Positions 15,573 to 57,940 of a stretch of DNA of 64,000 bases are shown in pieces. The translations under genes and the position numbers were made by a program. Every line of letters begins with the position of its first letter. Position 1 is the stretch's first letter. The notes beneath the pieces were generated by a model, which saw nothing but the letters and a program-made list of their open reading frames with translations, did no database searches and was not told the origin of the DNA. This DNA is from Thermoleophilaceae bacterium (GTDB lineage Bacteria > Actinomycetota > Thermoleophilia > Solirubrobacterales > Thermoleophilaceae): NCBI GenBank assembly GCA_040901445.1, contig JBBDYQ010000022.1:186001-250000 (forward strand), given 5' to 3'.

Positions 15573-16367
15573 ATGACCGTCCTCGCCGGGGTGCTGGGCC
15601 ATCCCGTCGCCCACAGCCGCTCGCCCGCGATCCACAACGCCGCGTTCGAGGCGCTCGGCCTCGACTGGCTGTACGTGCGCCTGCCGGTGCCGCCCGGCCT
15701 GCTGGCGGAGACGGTGCGCGCGCTGGGCGGGTCCGGGTATCGCGGGGCCAACGTCACGATCCCGCACAAGGAGGCAGCCCTCGCGACGGCCGGGAGCGCC
15801 ACCGGCGCGGCTCGCGCGATCGGGGCGGCCAACACGCTGAGCTTCGCGGACGGCGGCGGCGTGACGGCCGACAACACGGACGCCGGCGGGCTGCTGGACG
15901 CGCTGGGCGAGTCGCCCGAGGGGCTGCGCTGCCTGGTGCTGGGCGCGGGCGGCGCGGGCCGTGCCGCGGCCTGGGCGCTGCGCGAGGCGGGGGCCGCCGA
16001 GGTGGCGGTGTGGAACCGCACGCCGGAGCGCGCGCGGGCGCTGGCAGAGGAGCTCGGCGTTGCGCACGCCGCCCGCCCCGGCGGCGCCGACCTGCTCGTG
16101 AACGCCACCTCGGTGGGCCTCGACCCGGCGCTCGAGGCGGCGGACGCCATCGAGGCGCTCGGCCTGACCGGGGTGGATCCGCCCGCGCGGCTGGTGGACA
16201 TGGCCTACGGCGCCGAGCCCACCGCGCTGTGCGCCTGGGCCGCCCGTGCCGGCGCCCATGTGGTGGACGGCCTGGAGGTGCTCGTGCGCCAGGGTGCTCG
16301 GAGCTTCCGGATCTGGACCGGCCGGGCGGCGCCGCTGGACGTCATGCGCGCCGCCGCTCGCACCTAA
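15573..16367 (+). CDS. aroE: shikimate 5-dehydrogenase
   Basis: Reduces 3-dehydroshikimate to shikimate with NADPH. The 264-residue protein begins with GVLGHPVAHSRSPAIHNAAF, where SRSP binds shikimate. ANVTIPHKEAAL holds the catalytic Lys, NTDAGGLLDAL the catalytic Asp, LVLGAGGAGRAAAWAL is the nucleotide-binding loop and WNRTPERARAL the NRT motif for the NADP phosphate. VNATSVGL and the C-terminal GLEVLVRQGARSFRIWTG also match. ATG 15573 lies five bases after mltG. The other shikimate genes of this region are 31 kb downstream, separated by the pilus and accessory genes. Confidence 0.95.
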   Translation: MTVLAGVLGHPVAHSRSPAIHNAAFEALGLDWLYVRLPVPPGLLAETVRALGGSGYRGANVTIPHKEAALATAGSATGAARAIGAANTLSFADGGGVTADNTDAGGLLDALGESPEGLRCLVLGAGGAGRAAAWALREAGAAEVAVWNRTPERARALAEELGVAHAARPGGADLLVNATSVGLDPALEAADAIEALGLTGVDPPARLVDMAYGAEPTALCAWAARAGAHVVDGLEVLVRQGARSFRIWTGRAAPLDVMRAAART

Positions 16368-16399
16368 ACGTTCAGGCTCCGTCTGCCGATACCAGCTGC

Positions 16400-16894
16400 G
16401 TGACCCTGCCTCGACCTGCCCTGTTCGCGATCCTCGGCGGAGTGCTGATCCTGGCCGTCTTCGCGCTCACCCGCGCGACCGGCCAGGCCGACGACTCCGG
16501 CGCTGCCGCGCCCGCCCCTGCGCCCGCCGCGGAGGCGCCCGCGCCGGCGGCCGAGGAGCCGGTCGCCGAGCCTGCGGCCGCGAAGCCCGCAGACAGTGGC
16601 GTTCCCGCCGGCCTCGAGCAGGCCATCGAGAAGGGCCAGGTTGCCGTGCTCGCCTTCACGCAGGAGGGCGGCGCCGAGGACGACGCCGTCCGCGCCGCGG
16701 TGGGCTCGCTCAGCGGCGTCCCCGTCTTCGTCGACGACGTCACCGAGATCGCCGAGTACCGCAAGGTCGTGGGCGAGCTCGACCTCGACCGCGCCCCCGC
16801 GGTGGTGATCGTGCGCGCCGATGGCAAGGCCGAGGTCATCGAGGGCTACGTCGACCCGGGCTCGCTCGCGCAGCAGGTAGAGGACGCGAGATGA
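16400..16894 (+). CDS. membrane-anchored thioredoxin-like protein of unknown function, linked to pilB
   Basis: A 164-residue protein from GTG 16400. It has one N-terminal helix (LFAILGGVLILAVFALTRAT), an Ala/Pro-rich linker (about residues 28-65) and an extracytoplasmic C-terminal domain of about 85 residues. The pattern VAVLAFTQ...VPVFVDDVTEIAEYRKV...DRAPAVVIVRADGKAEVIEGYVD resembles a thioredoxin fold, with a cis-Pro-like RAPAVVIV, but there is no CxxC pair, so it is not redox-active as a thioredoxin. It overlaps pilB by four bases (ATGA), suggesting a structural role in pilus assembly. I do not recognise a named family. Confidence 0.75.
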   Translation: MTLPRPALFAILGGVLILAVFALTRATGQADDSGAAAPAPAPAAEAPAPAAEEPVAEPAAAKPADSGVPAGLEQAIEKGQVAVLAFTQEGGAEDDAVRAAVGSLSGVPVFVDDVTEIAEYRKVVGELDLDRAPAVVIVRADGKAEVIEGYVDPGSLAQQVEDAR

Positions 16895-18633
16895 CCGAGC
16901 CCTCGGCGCTCCCCGCCGCCGAGGCCGGAGAGAACACTCCCTCGAACGGCATCACGCCCCCCCGCCGCCGAGGCGGCGCCAGCCGTCCGCTGGCCGACGT
17001 GCTCGTGGAGCTGGGCTTCGTGGGCGCCGACCGCATGGCGGCGGCCGTGGAGCAGGGCCGTGCCGAGGGCGCCACGCCAGAGCGGGTGCTGGCCGAGGCG
17101 GGAGACCTGACCCCCGACCGGCACGCCCGCGCCCTGGCCGAACGCTCGGGCCTGGAGCACGTGGACCTGGCGATCTACAAGCCGGACCTGTCGGCCACGA
17201 ACCTGATCAGCGCCCAGAAGGCGCGGCGTTACGAGGCCGTGCCGATCGGCTACGACGAGGCCGGCACGCTGCTCGTGGCGATGGCGAAGCCGGGCAACGT
17301 GCTCGCCCTGGACGACTTCAAGCTCATGACGGGCAGCGAGGTGCGCGCCGTGGTGGCGTCGGCCGACGACATCGCCGGTCTGATCGGGCGCATGAACCGC
17401 CTGGACGACGCGGTGGCCGAGGCCGTGGAGGACCAGGACGAGGAGGAGCTGGCCGTCGTCTCCGAGATCCGCGAGTCGGCCGATGACGCGCCCGTCATCA
17501 AGCTCGTGAACTCGATCATCGCCCAGGCCGCCCAGGACGGTGCCTCCGACATCCACTTCGAACCCGAGGGCCGCGACATGCGCGTGCGCTTCCGCGTGGA
17601 CGGCGTGCTCACCGAGACCACCACGATCCCGCGACGCATGATCCCCGGCGTGATCTCGCGGGTGAAGATCATGGGCGACCTCGACATCGCCGAGCGGCGC
17701 ATGCCCCAGGACGGACGCGTGGGGCTCACGGTGGAGGGCCGCGGGGTCGACATCCGGATCGTGACGATCCCGTCGGTGCACGGCGAGGGCATCGTCATGC
17801 GCCTGCTCGACAAGGACACGTCGCTGATCACGCTCGACGCGCTCGGCATGAAGGACGACAGCCGCGACCGCTTCGAGGCCGCCAGCCGCGCCTCCCATGG
17901 CTGCGTGCTGGTGACGGGGCCCACCGGGTCGGGCAAGTCCACCACGCTGTACGCGGCGCTCAACGCCATCAACTCGATCGACAAGCACATCATCACGATC
18001 GAGGACCCGGTGGAGTACCAGCTCCCGGGCCTCACCCAGATCCAGGTGAACAACCGCTCGGGGCTGACGTTCGCGCGCGGCCTGCGCTCCATGCTGCGCG
18101 CCGATCCCGACGTGATCATGGTCGGCGAGATCCGCGACGGCGAGACCGCGCGCATCGCGGTGGAGTCCGCGCTCACCGGCCACCTCGTCCTCTCCACCCT
18201 GCACACCAACGACGCGCCGTCCGCGATCACCCGCCTCACCGAGATGGGGATCGAGCCCTTCCTCACCGCCTCGGCCGTGGACTGCGTGGTGGCTCAGCGG
18301 CTGGCGCGAATGCTCTGCCGGCACTGCCGCAGGGAGACCACGCTCGGCCCGGACGCGCTCGCCGCCGCGGGCCATGAGGTGGAGGAGCCGATCCAGGCCT
18401 TCGAGCCGGCCGGCTGCGGCCGCTGCGGCGGCAGCGGGTATCGCGGCCGCACCGGCCTGTTCGAGGTGATGAGCGTGAGCGAGGAGATCCGCTCGCTCGC
18501 GATCAAGCGCGAGTCCGCCGACGTGATCCGCACCGTGGCCGTGGAGCAGGGAATGCGCCTGCTGCGCGACGACGGGCTGGAGAAGGTGCGCCACGGCGTG
18601 ACCTCCATCGCCGAGGTGGCGAGGGTCGCGTGA
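16891..18633 (+). CDS. pilB: type IV pilus assembly ATPase PilB (GspE/T2SSE family)
   Basis: Cytosolic hexameric ATPase that powers pilin polymerisation. Its 580 residues comprise an N-terminal GspE_N-like domain (PLADVLVELGFVGADRMAAA ... PIGYDEAGTLLVAMAKPGN), then the motor core. Walker A is GPTGSGKS (about 343-350), the Asp box is ITIEDPVEYQLPGLTQIQVN, Walker B is RADPDVIMVGEIRDGETA and the His box is TGHLVLSTLHTNDA. A zinc-binding tetracysteine lies between about residues 476 and 511 (CRHC and CGRC). ATG 16891 overlaps the previous stop. The set pilB-pilT-pilC is contiguous here, while the pilins start 13 kb downstream. Confidence 0.96.
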   Translation: MTEPSALPAAEAGENTPSNGITPPRRRGGASRPLADVLVELGFVGADRMAAAVEQGRAEGATPERVLAEAGDLTPDRHARALAERSGLEHVDLAIYKPDLSATNLISAQKARRYEAVPIGYDEAGTLLVAMAKPGNVLALDDFKLMTGSEVRAVVASADDIAGLIGRMNRLDDAVAEAVEDQDEEELAVVSEIRESADDAPVIKLVNSIIAQAAQDGASDIHFEPEGRDMRVRFRVDGVLTETTTIPRRMIPGVISRVKIMGDLDIAERRMPQDGRVGLTVEGRGVDIRIVTIPSVHGEGIVMRLLDKDTSLITLDALGMKDDSRDRFEAASRASHGCVLVTGPTGSGKSTTLYAALNAINSIDKHIITIEDPVEYQLPGLTQIQVNNRSGLTFARGLRSMLRADPDVIMVGEIRDGETARIAVESALTGHLVLSTLHTNDAPSAITRLTEMGIEPFLTASAVDCVVAQRLARMLCRHCRRETTLGPDALAAAGHEVEEPIQAFEPAGCGRCGGSGYRGRTGLFEVMSVSEEIRSLAIKRESADVIRTVAVEQGMRLLRDDGLEKVRHGVTSIAEVARVA

Positions 18634-18663
18634 GCTGCCGATAACGAGGAGGACCCAGACCGC

Positions 18664-33725: not shown

Positions 33726-33732
33726 TGGACGA

Positions 33733-33738
33733 ATTATC
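33733..33738 (-). promoter_or_regulatory. -10 box of a probable leaderless promoter for the gene ending at 33294
   Basis: On the minus strand GATAAT occupies 33738-33733, leaving seven bases before GTG 33725. It is close to the consensus TATAAT and gives a transcript starting at or beside the start codon. Confidence 0.5.
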
Positions 33739-33781
33739 TATGCGCCGGCCCGCTCCATCGGCCGATACCTGACCCAAGCCA

Positions 33782-33898
33782 GGGCCACGGTGAGAAAGGC
33801 AAACCCGTCGTGAGGCGGGGACGCAAAGCTCCGGGGCTCCTCTCCGTCCGCTTCAGACCCGGGCTTGGAGCCGGCCGAGCTGCCACCACGAGTGGCTC
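33782..33898 (+). promoter_or_regulatory. cyclic di-GMP-I (GEMM) riboswitch upstream of the major pilin
   Basis: The conserved core is present: GGCAAACC (33798-33805), a P2 stem CCCGTC/GGCGGG closed by the GNRA tetraloop GTGA (33811-33814), and GGGACGCAAAGC (33818-33829), which form the ligand pocket of the GEMM aptamer. A P3 arm follows (GGCTCC at 33835-33840 with GGAGCC at 33867-33872). The P1 stem is GGGCCAC-like 33782-33788 with GTGGCTC 33892-33898. The expression platform would be the 50 bases to the Shine-Dalgarno sequence aaggagg of the pilin gene. c-di-GMP sensing before a type IV pilin fits motility/attachment control. Confidence 0.9.
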
Positions 33899-33948
33899 CT
33901 CCGGGCGCTGGCAATCAACCAACCAGCACTCCCTCAAGGAGGAGACAC

Positions 33949-34407
33949 ATGCTGCGGAAGCTCATGGAGCGCATGCACAGCGAGGAGAAGGGCTTCACCC
34001 TTATCGAGCTCCTCGTCGTCATGCTGATCATCGGGATCCTGGCCGCCATCGCGCTGCCGGTGTTCCTCGGTCAGCAGGAGAAGGGCCAGGACTCGAGCGC
34101 GAAGTCGGACGCTCGCAACCTGGTGTCCCACGTGGAGTCGTGTTTCGCCGAGACCCAGGCGTACGCGAGCTGCGCCGACTCGGCCGCGCTCAACCCGACC
34201 GGGTTGGCGATCGGCGCGGACAACGGGCAGGTCGAGGTCACGGCGACCGCGGCCGACGGCTACACGATCGTCGGTCACTCCCAGAGCGACCACGATTTCC
34301 AGATCCAGAAGACGTCCACGGGCTCCGTGCGGACCTGTGACACCACCGGCGGCACGTTCGGTGAGGATGGCGACGACGGCGGTGGCTGCAACAACGGCGA
34401 CTGGTAG
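33949..34407 (+). CDS. type IV pilin (likely major subunit, PilA-like)
   Basis: A 152-residue prepilin. The leader MLRKLMERMHSEEKG is cut before Phe16, giving FTLIELLVVMLIIGILAAIA with Glu at +5, the standard class III signal for PilD. The C-terminal head contains two cysteine pairs (C in VESCFAE and ASCAD; C in VRTCDTT and GGCNN) that may form a disulfide loop. Four reasons favour a major subunit: a strong ribosome site, its own terminator right after, its own riboswitch, and small size. It is the first gene of the large pilin cluster. Confidence 0.93.
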   Translation: MLRKLMERMHSEEKGFTLIELLVVMLIIGILAAIALPVFLGQQEKGQDSSAKSDARNLVSHVESCFAETQAYASCADSAALNPTGLAIGADNGQVEVTATAADGYTIVGHSQSDHDFQIQKTSTGSVRTCDTTGGTFGEDGDDGGGCNNGDW

Positions 34408-34432: not shown

Positions 34433-34460
34433 AAGGGCGGGCCTTCGGGCCCGCCCTTTT
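34433..34460 (+). terminator. intrinsic terminator after the major pilin gene
   Basis: AAGGGCGGGCC (34433-34443), UUCG tetraloop, GGCCCGCCCTT (34448-34458), then TT. A perfect 11-bp stem with an extra-stable tetraloop lies 26 bases after the pilin stop. Partial read-through would give the pilin a much higher mRNA level than the minor pilins downstream. Confidence 0.9.
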
Positions 34461-34478
34461 CATGCCGATAACAGGCCC

Positions 34479-38649: not shown

Positions 38650-38711
38650 GCGGCGTGCGGGGAGGGAACCGCCTAAAGCCGTTGCGCGAATCCGCCGATT
38701 CCCGATGTGGA

Positions 38712-42222: not shown

Positions 42223-43607
42223 GACGGCGCATCCGGTCCGAGGACGGCGTGGCGATGACCGTCGCGATGTTCACGCTCGCGGTGATCGCGCTGTTCTCGG
42301 CGCTGATCGCATCCACGGCAGGGCAGCTCGGCGAGACCTCCAACCAGGACCGCGACAGCAAGCGCGCCCTGGGCGCCGCCGAGGCGGGCATCAACACCGC
42401 CCTGCACCGCCTCAACAACGCTCCGACCCCACTCGACAACCTCGGCTGCTTCACGGACGTGCAACTGGGGGTGCTGGCGGAGGCGACTCCGGTCCCCGGC
42501 GTCGTCGCCACGGGCGATGTTCCGCTGAGCGTGCAGGCGGGGCACTGCCCGGGAGCCGCCGGCCGGGCGGGCAACGACGGCACCTACACGTACTTCATCA
42601 CCCTGCTCAACAACGGCCAGCACTGCGACGCGCAGTACACGACGCAGACCGAGGTCACCAGCCTGCTCGCGCTCGGGATCGGCGGGATCAGCGTGCTGCG
42701 CCGCTGCATCACCTCGATCGGGGTGGTCAACGGCGTCCAGCGCCGTGTGCAGCGCGAGGTGTACTCGGAGTTCCGGCTGTTCCAGGGGCTGATCGGGACA
42801 GGCGACGTGACCGTGAGCACGCTCGCCAACCTCGGCACGAGCCACGTCGGCTCGAACGGGCTGGTGACGATGGCCGGTGGGAGCCTCTTCGGGGGCCAGG
42901 TCGAGATCTATGGGGAGGACGAGCCCCAGATCTTCGCCACCGGCGTGTGGGGGGTGACCCACCGCGCCGACCCGTGGATCCTGGATCCCGTTGAAGTGTC
43001 GGACATCAACGCGGGGACCATCACCTGCGTCGGTCCGTTGATCCTCATCCCCTGCGATACCAGTGTCGCCGGGCTCCATCCGGCCAGTCGCCGGGTGCGG
43101 GTGCCCACCGGCTACACGGTGACGATCGCGGCGGGCGACCACTACATCTGCGAGCTCTCCGTCACGGGCGGCTCGCTCCTCGTGGGTGGCGAGGCGCGCG
43201 TGTTCATCGACGACGACTGCCCGGCTGGGGAGGGTTTCACCATGCAGGGCGGGCTGGTCAACGCCACGGGCATCGTGTCCGCGGAGAACCTCCAGATCTA
43301 TGTCGAGGGCGACAGCACCGTCAGCATCCGCGGCGGCGTGCTGGCCACGGCCAACATCACCCTGTACGCGCCCCGCTCGAGCGTGGTGGTCGAGCAGGGA
43401 GGCGGGCTGCTGGCGCCCATCGTCAAGGGCAGCATCTCGGCCGAGTCGATCACGATCGGGCAGGGCGCCACGTTTGTCGGCGACCCGCTGCTCGACATCA
43501 CAACGCCGTTCGAGCAGATCGCAGGCGTGTGGCATCCGGGCAACTGGTCGGAGTGTCCCGCCAAGCCCGCCGAGGCCGACGACCCGCACTCGGGCTGCAA
43601 CGGCTAA
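42219..43607 (+). CDS. PilX-like pilus assembly protein with beta-helix-like C terminus, third module
   Basis: A 462-residue protein. The short leader ending SEDG precedes VAMTVAMFTLAVIALFSALI, lacking Glu at +5, and RDSKRALGAAEAGINTALHR, the PilX-type helix. The C-terminal 200 residues consist of short, regularly spaced strands (SEFRLFQGLIGTGDVTVSTL, VTMAGGSLFGGQVEIYGEDE, FTMQGGLVNATGIVSAENLQ), suggesting a right-handed beta-helix as in polymer-forming or adhesin domains. It ends with a Cys-containing tail. It is the last pilin-type gene before pilM. Confidence 0.78.
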   Translation: MRRRIRSEDGVAMTVAMFTLAVIALFSALIASTAGQLGETSNQDRDSKRALGAAEAGINTALHRLNNAPTPLDNLGCFTDVQLGVLAEATPVPGVVATGDVPLSVQAGHCPGAAGRAGNDGTYTYFITLLNNGQHCDAQYTTQTEVTSLLALGIGGISVLRRCITSIGVVNGVQRRVQREVYSEFRLFQGLIGTGDVTVSTLANLGTSHVGSNGLVTMAGGSLFGGQVEIYGEDEPQIFATGVWGVTHRADPWILDPVEVSDINAGTITCVGPLILIPCDTSVAGLHPASRRVRVPTGYTVTIAAGDHYICELSVTGGSLLVGGEARVFIDDDCPAGEGFTMQGGLVNATGIVSAENLQIYVEGDSTVSIRGGVLATANITLYAPRSSVVVEQGGGLLAPIVKGSISAESITIGQGATFVGDPLLDITTPFEQIAGVWHPGNWSECPAKPAEADDPHSGCNG

Positions 43608-43654
43608 AGCGCGGCGCGGCAGCGGTCGATACCCGGATCAGGGTCCCCTCTGCC

Positions 43655-56818: not shown

Positions 56819-57940
56819 CTAGCGCTCGACCCGGTGGTCGAGCAGGGCGAGGCAGAACGCCTCGACCACGTCCGGGTCGAACTGCACGCCGGCGAAGCGG
56901 CGCAGCTCGCCGAGCGCCGCGGGCACCGGCATGGCCCGCCGGTAGGGCCGCGTGGTGGTCATCGCGTCGTATGCGCTGCACACCGCCACCACGCGCGCGC
57001 CGAGCGGGATCTCGGCGCCGGACAGGCCGTCGGGGTAGCCGTGGCCGTCCCAGCGCTCGGGGATCGAACGGACCATGGCGGCGGCGTCGGCGAGATCGGG
57101 TGCGGCGGCCACGATGCGCTCGCCGATCGCGGTGTGGCGGCGCAGGAACGCCCACTCCTCTTCGTCGAGGGGGCCGGCCTTGTCGAGGATGCGCTCGGGG
57201 ATCGCCATCTTGCCCACGTCGTGGAGGCCGGCGGCGATGCGGATCTGCTCCACCTCGCCGTCCGCCACGCCGAGCTTGCGGGCGGTGTCCTCGGCCAGCT
57301 CGGCCAGCTCCCGCCGCTGCTCCACCTTCTGCTCGTCGCGGTCGCGCAGCGCGGCGGCGAGGGCGTCGCCGGCACGGCCCCGGCGGGCGGCGCGGCGCGC
57401 CAGGCGGTCCTCGCGCAGTCGCTCGCCGGCCAGTCGCAGCCCCTCGGCCGCATCCTCGGCCTCGACCGGCAGCAGCGCCGAGCCCTGGGAGCAGCCAACG
57501 GAGAAGCCCTGGCCCTCCTCGAACAGCGCGGCGGTGGCCACCGACAGCACGCGGTCGGGTCCCTCGCCGTGGATCGGGACGACGATCGAGAACTCGGCCG
57601 GTCCCGTGCGGTGCACTCCGCCGCGCCCGCCGACGGCGCGCACGAGGGCCGCGCCGAGCCGGGCGAGCAGGGCATTGCCCGCGGCGGGGCCGAAGAGCTC
57701 GGCATATCCGTGGAAGTCGTCGAGGTCGAGCACGGCCACGAGAAGGGGGCGCTCGGGGGTGGCGCAGGCCAGGCGGCGCTCGACCTCGGCGGCGAGGTGC
57801 GGCCGCTCCACCACGGCGGTGGGGTCGGGCTCCCCGGCGGCGGCGGCGGGCCGCCTGCGCATGCCGAGCACCGCGAACAGCGCGCCGCCGAGGGCGGCCA
57901 GGAGCAGCTCCAGGGCGTGAGTCGCCTCCACGCTGGACAC
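56819..57940 (-). CDS. GGDEF-like/HD-GYP hybrid signalling protein with degenerate active sites
   Basis: A 373-residue protein with one N-terminal helix (LELLLAALGGALFAVLGMRR), a diguanylate-cyclase-like domain (about 45-165) and an HD-GYP domain. In the first, the GGDEF signature is replaced by TGPAEF, so cyclase activity is unlikely. In the second, the HD pair (IRIAAGLHDVGKMAIPERIL) is intact, but the HHE of the third motif is IPE (RSIPERWDGHGYPDGLSG), removing a metal ligand. VVAVCSAYDAMTTTRPYRRA is standard. It may act as a c-di-GMP sensor or a weak phosphodiesterase. GTG 57940 is divergent from dnaE2, 35 bases from its LexA box. Confidence 0.8.
   Translation of the reverse strand: MSSVEATHALELLLAALGGALFAVLGMRRRPAAAAGEPDPTAVVERPHLAAEVERRLACATPERPLLVAVLDLDDFHGYAELFGPAAGNALLARLGAALVRAVGGRGGVHRTGPAEFSIVVPIHGEGPDRVLSVATAALFEEGQGFSVGCSQGSALLPVEAEDAAEGLRLAGERLREDRLARRAARRGRAGDALAAALRDRDEQKVEQRRELAELAEDTARKLGVADGEVEQIRIAAGLHDVGKMAIPERILDKAGPLDEEEWAFLRRHTAIGERIVAAAPDLADAAAMVRSIPERWDGHGYPDGLSGAEIPLGARVVAVCSAYDAMTTTRPYRRAMPVPAALGELRRFAGVQFDPDVVEAFCLALLDHRVER

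What the first reader, a model, noticed from the sequence alone, without database searches (positions are those of the whole stretch)
33782..33898. c-di-GMP-I riboswitch controls a type IV pilin operon
The core motifs GGCAAACC, GNRA-capped P2 and GGGACGCAAAGC are all present 50 bases before the pilin Shine-Dalgarno sequence, and a strong terminator follows the pilin gene. c-di-GMP riboswitches before pilins are known mostly from clostridia; an actinobacterial case linked to a whole pilus locus is of interest.
Basis: partly seen in the sequence, partly recalled or inferred. Interest (0 to 1): 0.6.

Follow-up and report, generated by a model that had tools for sequence, protein, structure and literature searches.

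The report
Pilin gene with c-di-GMP RNA sensor

Summary
The aptamer is real: 33789-33888 (+) matches Rfam c-di-GMP-I-GGC (63.2 bits, cut-off 59) and c-di-GMP-I (59.7, cut-off 35). Its pocket is the canonical c-di-GMP one: A, not the GGC model's G, at the A47-equivalent. It lies 48 nt before the Shine-Dalgarno of a type IV prepilin. Such aptamers are common in this phylum (127 of 296 sampled genomes).

New here: related pilin leaders share a sigma-WhiG-type promoter (TAAA-N14-17-GCCGATAA, up to 2 mismatches: 14 of 26; shuffles 0.4%). Outside the order, 36 of 60 c-di-GMP-I aptamers have one within 95 nt upstream (control stretches 8 of 1031). This genome encodes WhiG and a single-motif RsiG, the c-di-GMP-dependent anti-sigma; 121 of 129 riboswitch-bearing genomes have RsiG against 79 of 167 others. 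The window's own pilin promoter keeps the -10 but not the -35.

So c-di-GMP may gate one transcript twice, at initiation and in the leader. Folding did not reveal the sign of the leader switch; I lean towards OFF.

The parts
33726..33734 (+). half of a box (TGGAC-N4) that in relatives' riboswitch leaders reads TGGAC-N4-GTCCA; weak here (second half TATCT)
   Evidence: box with up to 2 mismatches in 48 of 108 leaders of the order against 23 of 887 control stretches; 2 of 60 in other orders; window copy read by eye
33741..33744 (+). position of the -35 element of a sigma-WhiG-type promoter; reads TGCG, not TAAA
33761..33768 (+). -10 element GCCGATAC of a sigma-WhiG/FliA-type promoter, same distance from the aptamer as in relatives L068 and L070
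   Evidence: consensus -35 TAAA, -10 GCCGATAA from PMC8325347 (passages)
33778..33782 (+). possible outer stem P0, 5' strand GCCAG (pairs with 33908-33912)
   Evidence: suggestive only: the plain alignment does not exceed shuffles
33789..33888 (+). c-di-GMP-I riboswitch aptamer; P1 33789-33792 with 33884-33887; ligand-contacting residues G33798 (G20), A33825 (A47), C33883 (C92)
33908..33912 (+). possible outer stem P0, 3' strand CTGGC
33937..33942 (+). Shine-Dalgarno AGGAGG of the pilin gene; in the model it pairs with UCCUCC at about 33898-33903 with or without P1
33949..34407 (+). type IV prepilin, 152 aa (MLRKLMERMHSEEKGFTLIELLV...)
   Evidence: N_methyl PF07963, E 6e-9; translation
34433..34460 (+). 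terminator-like hairpin with UUUU after the pilin gene
16365..16392 (+). sigma-WhiG-type promoter TAAA-N16-GCCGATAC (1 mismatch), 7 nt before a GTG that opens the reading frame preceding pilB
38674..38701 (+). sigma-WhiG-type promoter TAAA-N16-GCCGATTC (2 mismatches) before a prepilin gene (ATG 38712)
43605..43632 (+). sigma-WhiG-type promoter TAAA-N16-GTCGATAC (2 mismatches) before pilM (ATG 43655)

Best explanation
The pilin mRNA begins just upstream of 33789 and carries a canonical c-di-GMP-I aptamer. In this lineage c-di-GMP is read twice on the same transcript: first at the promoter, where c-di-GMP lets the anti-sigma RsiG hold sigma-WhiG and so stops initiation; then in the leader, where c-di-GMP folds the aptamer and changes translation of the pilin. 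Shown by computation: aptamer, pocket residues, pilin, the order- and phylum-wide pairing of WhiG-type promoters with c-di-GMP-I aptamers, and WhiG and RsiG genes in this genome. Inferred: that WhiG (not FliA or another sigma) starts this transcript, that the switch acts on translation rather than termination (no terminator-like element in the leader), and the sign. I think it more likely that c-di-GMP lowers pilin translation (OFF, about 0.55), which would make the two layers agree.
For: Aptamer. Pocket G20/A47/C92 in 26 of 26 pilin leaders. WhiG-type promoters: 14 of 26 pilin leaders and 11 of 82 other leaders of the order with up to 2 mismatches, shuffles 0.3-0.4%, far-upstream stretches 1 of 202 and 0 of 694; outside the order 36 of 60, against 36 of 3000 shuffles, 3 of 485 upstream and 5 of 546 downstream stretches and 0 of 60 for a scrambled consensus. 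WhiG candidate: TIGR02479 282.6 bits, 306 bits to 6pfj_A, which a review names as an entry of the S. venezuelae RsiG-WhiG work (passage). RsiG: PF22802 73.5 bits, 86-aa ORF with E-QEV-S-YR-R-RIL-H-GKI-D, the published motif with its H variant (section read). RsiG in 121 of 129 riboswitch-bearing genomes against 79 of 167 others. 17 GGDEF matches in the genome. Three more WhiG-type promoters before pilus genes in the window. RsiG/WhiG control of type IV pili is reported for Rubrobacter.
Against: The window's own pilin promoter has no TAAA (TGCG; 4 mismatches in all), so the promoter claim rests on relatives and on other promoters of the locus. Folding with P1 forced or forbidden leaves the Shine-Dalgarno equally covered in the window (0.17 and 0.18 unpaired) and shows no consistent shift in 25 leaders. 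A local Shine-Dalgarno hairpin is no stronger than at 113 control starts. The other three riboswitches of this genome show no WhiG-type promoter with up to 2 mismatches. Counts are not corrected for relatedness.
Confidence: 0.6

Rival explanations
1. Same aptamer, opposite sign: c-di-GMP turns pilin translation ON while RsiG-WhiG turns transcription OFF, giving pili only at intermediate c-di-GMP (a band-pass).
For: The pilin leaders differ in layout from the order's other leaders: start codon mostly 54-90 nt behind the aptamer, whereas 59 of 82 other leaders have a Shine-Dalgarno-like motif within 16 nt of the aptamer, so the platform may work differently. In C. difficile c-di-GMP raises pilA1 through a class II riboswitch, and class I riboswitches can be ON (PMC6366702, passages).
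Against: No alternative structure that frees the Shine-Dalgarno on binding was found.
Confidence: 0.35
2. The WhiG-type promoter is irrelevant to this gene: the window's pilin is transcribed by FliA or a housekeeping sigma, and only the riboswitch senses c-di-GMP.
For: The -35 is lost here; the genome has at least one more sigma of this class, a FliA-like protein beside ORFs that look flagellar (by eye, no family search), with the same promoter specificity (WhiG shares it with flagellar sigmas).
Against: The -10 GCCGATAC is kept at the homologous place, and WhiG-type promoters precede other pilus genes of the window.
Confidence: 0.3
3. The aptamer belongs to the c-di-GMP-I-GGC variant and senses a different ligand.
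For: Best score is to RF03167.
Against: The model's consensus has G at the A47-equivalent, the window has A (alignment); all 26 pilin leaders have A. [quoted passage not shown]
Confidence: 0.05
4. A cGAMP-selective (GEMM-Ib-like) aptamer.
For: Same fold; cGAMP riboswitches occur before pilus genes in Geobacter (recalled).
Against: Residue 20 is G in 26 of 26 pilin leaders; cGAMP-selective members carry A there (recalled).
Confidence: 0.03

Closest known systems
c-di-GMP-I (GEMM-I) riboswitch, Rfam RF01051
   Same: sequence, fold and pocket residues; 59.7 bits against cut-off 35
   Different: possible extra outer stem; translational rather than terminator platform (inferred); found with WhiG-type promoters
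c-di-GMP-I-GGC, Rfam RF03167
   Same: best-scoring model, 63.2 bits
   Different: A, not the model's consensus G, at the A47-equivalent
[quoted passage not shown]
   Same: WhiG, single-motif RsiG and WhiG-type promoters before pilus genes
   Different: that paper's held main text has no mention of riboswitches (0 occurrences); here a c-di-GMP aptamer lies on the same transcript
C. difficile pilA1 with c-di-GMP-II riboswitch Cdi-2-4 (PMC6366702)
   Same: riboswitch before the major pilin gene
   Different: class II, ON, by transcription termination, clostridial

Membership tests
c-di-GMP-I riboswitch (RF01051) | covariance score above the curated cut-off | tested here: met
   59.7 bits against 35, 0 of 14 controls
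c-di-GMP-I riboswitch (RF01051) | G20, A47, C92 pocket | tested here: met
   G33798, A33825, C33883; 26 of 26 pilin leaders
c-di-GMP-I riboswitch (RF01051) | covarying P1/P2/P3 | tested here: met
   10 of 22 predicted pairs with double changes in 24 leaders; these lie in P2 and P3, not in P1
c-di-GMP-I riboswitch (RF01051) | binds c-di-GMP and changes expression | not testable with these tools
   needs in-line probing and fusions
c-di-GMP-I-GGC variant (RF03167) | score above cut-off | tested here: met
   63.2 bits against 59
c-di-GMP-I-GGC variant (RF03167) | G at the A47-equivalent (model consensus; that the name refers to it is recalled) | tested here: not met
   A33825 (alignment)
RsiG-WhiG regulon | genome encodes WhiG and RsiG with E(X)3S(X)2R(X)3[Q/H](X)3D | tested here: met
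RsiG-WhiG regulon | pilin promoter matches TAAA / GCCGATAA with at most 2 mismatches | tested here: not met
   window 4 mismatches; 14 of 26 relatives' leaders met
RsiG-WhiG regulon | such promoters elsewhere in the pilus locus | tested here: met
   16365, 38674, 43605
type IV prepilin | N_methyl class III signal | tested here: met
   PF07963 35.5 bits against 21.2

The most novel reading that the evidence does not exclude
Across Actinomycetota, c-di-GMP-I riboswitches are a second layer on sigma-WhiG transcripts: c-di-GMP is sensed by the anti-sigma at initiation and again by the RNA leader of the same mRNA, so that pili and secreted proteins follow a double (sharpened or band-pass) response to one messenger.
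Probability: 0.55. Interest if true: 0.78.

Novelty: new variant of a known kind. Interest (0 to 1): 0.6.

Why it matters
It would be a case of one second messenger gating the same transcript through two unrelated receptors, a protein anti-sigma and an RNA aptamer. It would give the RsiG-WhiG switch a phylum-wide set of likely targets outside sporulation, and an easy search: a c-di-GMP-I aptamer in an actinobacterial leader points to a WhiG promoter upstream. The signs of the two layers decide between a sharpened off-switch and a band-pass, which two reporter fusions can tell apart.

Tried and rejected
Shine-Dalgarno switching by thermodynamics: forcing or forbidding P1 in 25 leaders gave no consistent change. 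Local Shine-Dalgarno hairpin as a conserved element: looked striking by eye (e.g. GACTC/GAGTC, GAATCC/GGATTC) but does not differ in accessibility from 113 control starts, and is if anything weaker in energy. Outer stem P0 (GCCAG/CTGGC, with GTCAG/CTGAC in L090 and one L097 leader and GCCAA/TTGGC in L113): tempting, but single-leader shuffles are mostly not significant (combined p 0.01) and the plain alignment does not exceed shuffles (80 of 500); kept as suggestive. Competing CTGG/CCAG pairing near the Shine-Dalgarno: seen by eye in under half of the leaders, dropped. Direct pairing of the Shine-Dalgarno with the 5' flank in the non-pilin leaders: 59 of 82 have a Shine-Dalgarno-like motif within 16 nt of the aptamer, but complementarity exceeds shuffles in no more cases than expected (1 of 59 at p 0.05). 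PilB as a third c-di-GMP sensor: it has an MshEN domain, but the RLG...Q motif given in PMC5013675 (passages) is not kept in the sequence (by eye), so not claimed. First RsiG search by a motif pattern that allowed only Q was near control level (candidates read); the Pfam family found it, with H in that place.

Selections and misreads: of the RF03167 matches printed (the list was itself cut) I used 107 plus the window, 108 in all: all but two of those above the cut-off and a hand-picked part of the weaker ones. The pilin set is 24 by rule plus L059 and L108 by eye; L129 was left out of the structure work and one identical L099 leader out of the alignment. The 60 aptamers were taken from the top of the score-ordered list, skipping the same order and some further rows, so they are not a random sample; they come from 18 family labels, and the 36 positives from 12 (my count by hand). 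Four 'G47' readings are my pattern misreading CGCGC runs; the sequences printed read A. A first script for the pocket count had a faulty pattern and was replaced.

Full report
Observation. cmscan of the whole window gives one match at gathering threshold, RF03167 c-di-GMP-I-GGC at 33789-33888 (+), 63.2 bits; the parent model RF01051 scores the same place 59.7 bits against a cut-off of 35. The genome (3.54 Mb, 25 contigs) has three more copies; those three lie in front of long open frames with secreted-looking N-termini (by eye), none of which matched a Pfam family.

Ligand. The alignment to RF03167 differs at the base that follows GGGACGC: the model's consensus has G, the window has A. Residues equivalent to G20, A47 and C92 are G, A and C in 26 of 26 pilin leaders. 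[quoted passage not shown] I therefore expect ordinary c-di-GMP binding. That 'GGC' names the three pocket bases is recalled; the source paper was not held.

Target. The downstream ORF 33949-34407 is a type IV prepilin. The window also holds pilB, pilT and pilC (16.9-21 kb), more prepilin-like genes, a pilD-type prepilin peptidase, PilM and PilO (34.5-46 kb). A hairpin with four U after the pilin gene suggests that the pilin is mostly transcribed alone, so 'operon' is too wide.

Relatives. RF03167 matches in 80 of 151 relatives, 52 of them above cut-off. I mapped 108 aptamers; 24 lead into a prepilin by rule and two more by eye. Of six metagenome-assembled loci that encode a close pilin homologue, four have a c-di-GMP-I aptamer at gathering threshold. 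In a phylum sample 127 of 296 genomes have c-di-GMP-I above cut-off, so an actinobacterial case is common.

Promoter. Upstream of the pilin aptamers the relatives share TAAA-N16-GCCGATAA: up to 2 mismatches in 14 of 26 pilin leaders and 11 of 82 others, against 0.3-0.4% of shuffles and 1 of 202 and 0 of 694 far-upstream stretches. This is the flagellar/WhiG consensus used for Rubrobacter (PMC8325347, passages). Outside the order 36 of 60 aptamers have it within 95 nt and 8 of 60 precede a type IV pilin; controls give 36 of 3000 shuffles, 3 of 485 upstream stretches, 5 of 546 downstream stretches and 0 of 60 for a scrambled consensus. Against my reading: the window's own pilin promoter is TGCG-N16-GCCGATAC, 4 mismatches. 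In its favour: three promoters with up to 2 mismatches stand directly before other pilus genes of the window (16365, 38674, 43605); the two further matches of that search (35131 on the minus strand and 42167) lie in or overlap coding frames. A genome-wide search with a fixed N15 spacer and 2 mismatches gave 38 matches against 11 for the reversed pattern.

Sigma and anti-sigma. The genome has three FliA/WhiG-class proteins over the TIGR02479 cut-off. The best has 306 bits to 6pfj_A and 304 to 6pfv_A, entries that a review lists for the S. venezuelae RsiG-WhiG work (PMC7288161, passage); the protein at C25:108268 is a weaker match beside frames that look flagellar (by eye). RsiG is found by PF22802 at 73.5 bits with 0 of 14 controls; its 86-aa ORF carries one copy of E(X)3S(X)2R(X)3[Q/H](X)3D, the single-motif form that the paper found only in Rubrobacteria and Thermoleophilia. 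From this I infer, without a name for the genome, that it is a thermoleophilian. RsiG is in 115 of 151 relatives and 200 of 296 phylum genomes; 121 of 129 riboswitch-bearing genomes have it against 79 of 167 without riboswitch. That table is not corrected for relatedness. The genome has 17 GGDEF matches.

Mechanism. High c-di-GMP lets RsiG bind WhiG (PMC11139211, passages), so the promoter layer should be OFF at high c-di-GMP. The leader layer has no terminator-like element between aptamer and start codon, so it most likely acts on translation, a tendency reported for riboswitches of this phylum (PMC12452182, passage). Its sign is open: in 25 leaders folding does not couple P1 to the Shine-Dalgarno, the local Shine-Dalgarno hairpin is no more than control starts have, and the outer stem is suggestive only. 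In the order's other leaders a Shine-Dalgarno-like motif often lies right at the foot of the aptamer (59 of 82 within 16 nt), which suggests OFF there, although pairing with the 5' flank does not exceed shuffles. I give OFF 0.55 for the pilin.

Novelty. Neither device is new. Their pairing on one transcript I did not find in print: searches for RsiG with riboswitch (4 papers) and WhiG with c-di-GMP and riboswitch (8 papers) in the held open-access library; passages of three of them treat the two apart, and the other listed papers I saw only as titles and abstract starts. PMC8325347's main text holds 'riboswitch' 0 times. Most subscription papers are not in that library and supplements were not searched, so prior notice cannot be excluded.

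Noticed in passing
window 33726-33739 and upstream of riboswitch leaders of the order: A palindromic box TGGAC-N4-GTCCA upstream of c-di-GMP riboswitch leaders (48 of 108 with up to 2 mismatches, controls 23 of 887); only 2 of 60 outside the order. The binding protein is unknown.
   Followed up: partly
window 16894-18630: PilB carries an MshEN domain (60.9 bits), but the published c-di-GMP-binding residues are not kept.
   Followed up: partly
window 57395-57820 (-): A weak GGDEF match (39.6 bits).
   Followed up: no
L069 and L064: Aptamers with A and C at the G20-equivalent, candidates for changed ligand preference.
   Followed up: no
L044, L045, L049, L052, L054, L091 and others: Many leaders of secreted-looking proteins have CACACC or CACCCC in place of CAAACC together with changed bases opposite in P2.
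   Followed up: no
window 34464-34471 and 18637-18644: Perfect GCCGATAA -10 elements without a TAAA, 7 nt before the ATG of a second prepilin-like gene (34479) and just before pilT (18664).
   Followed up: no
L099 and L097: Pairs of pilin genes close together, each with its own riboswitch leader.
   Followed up: no
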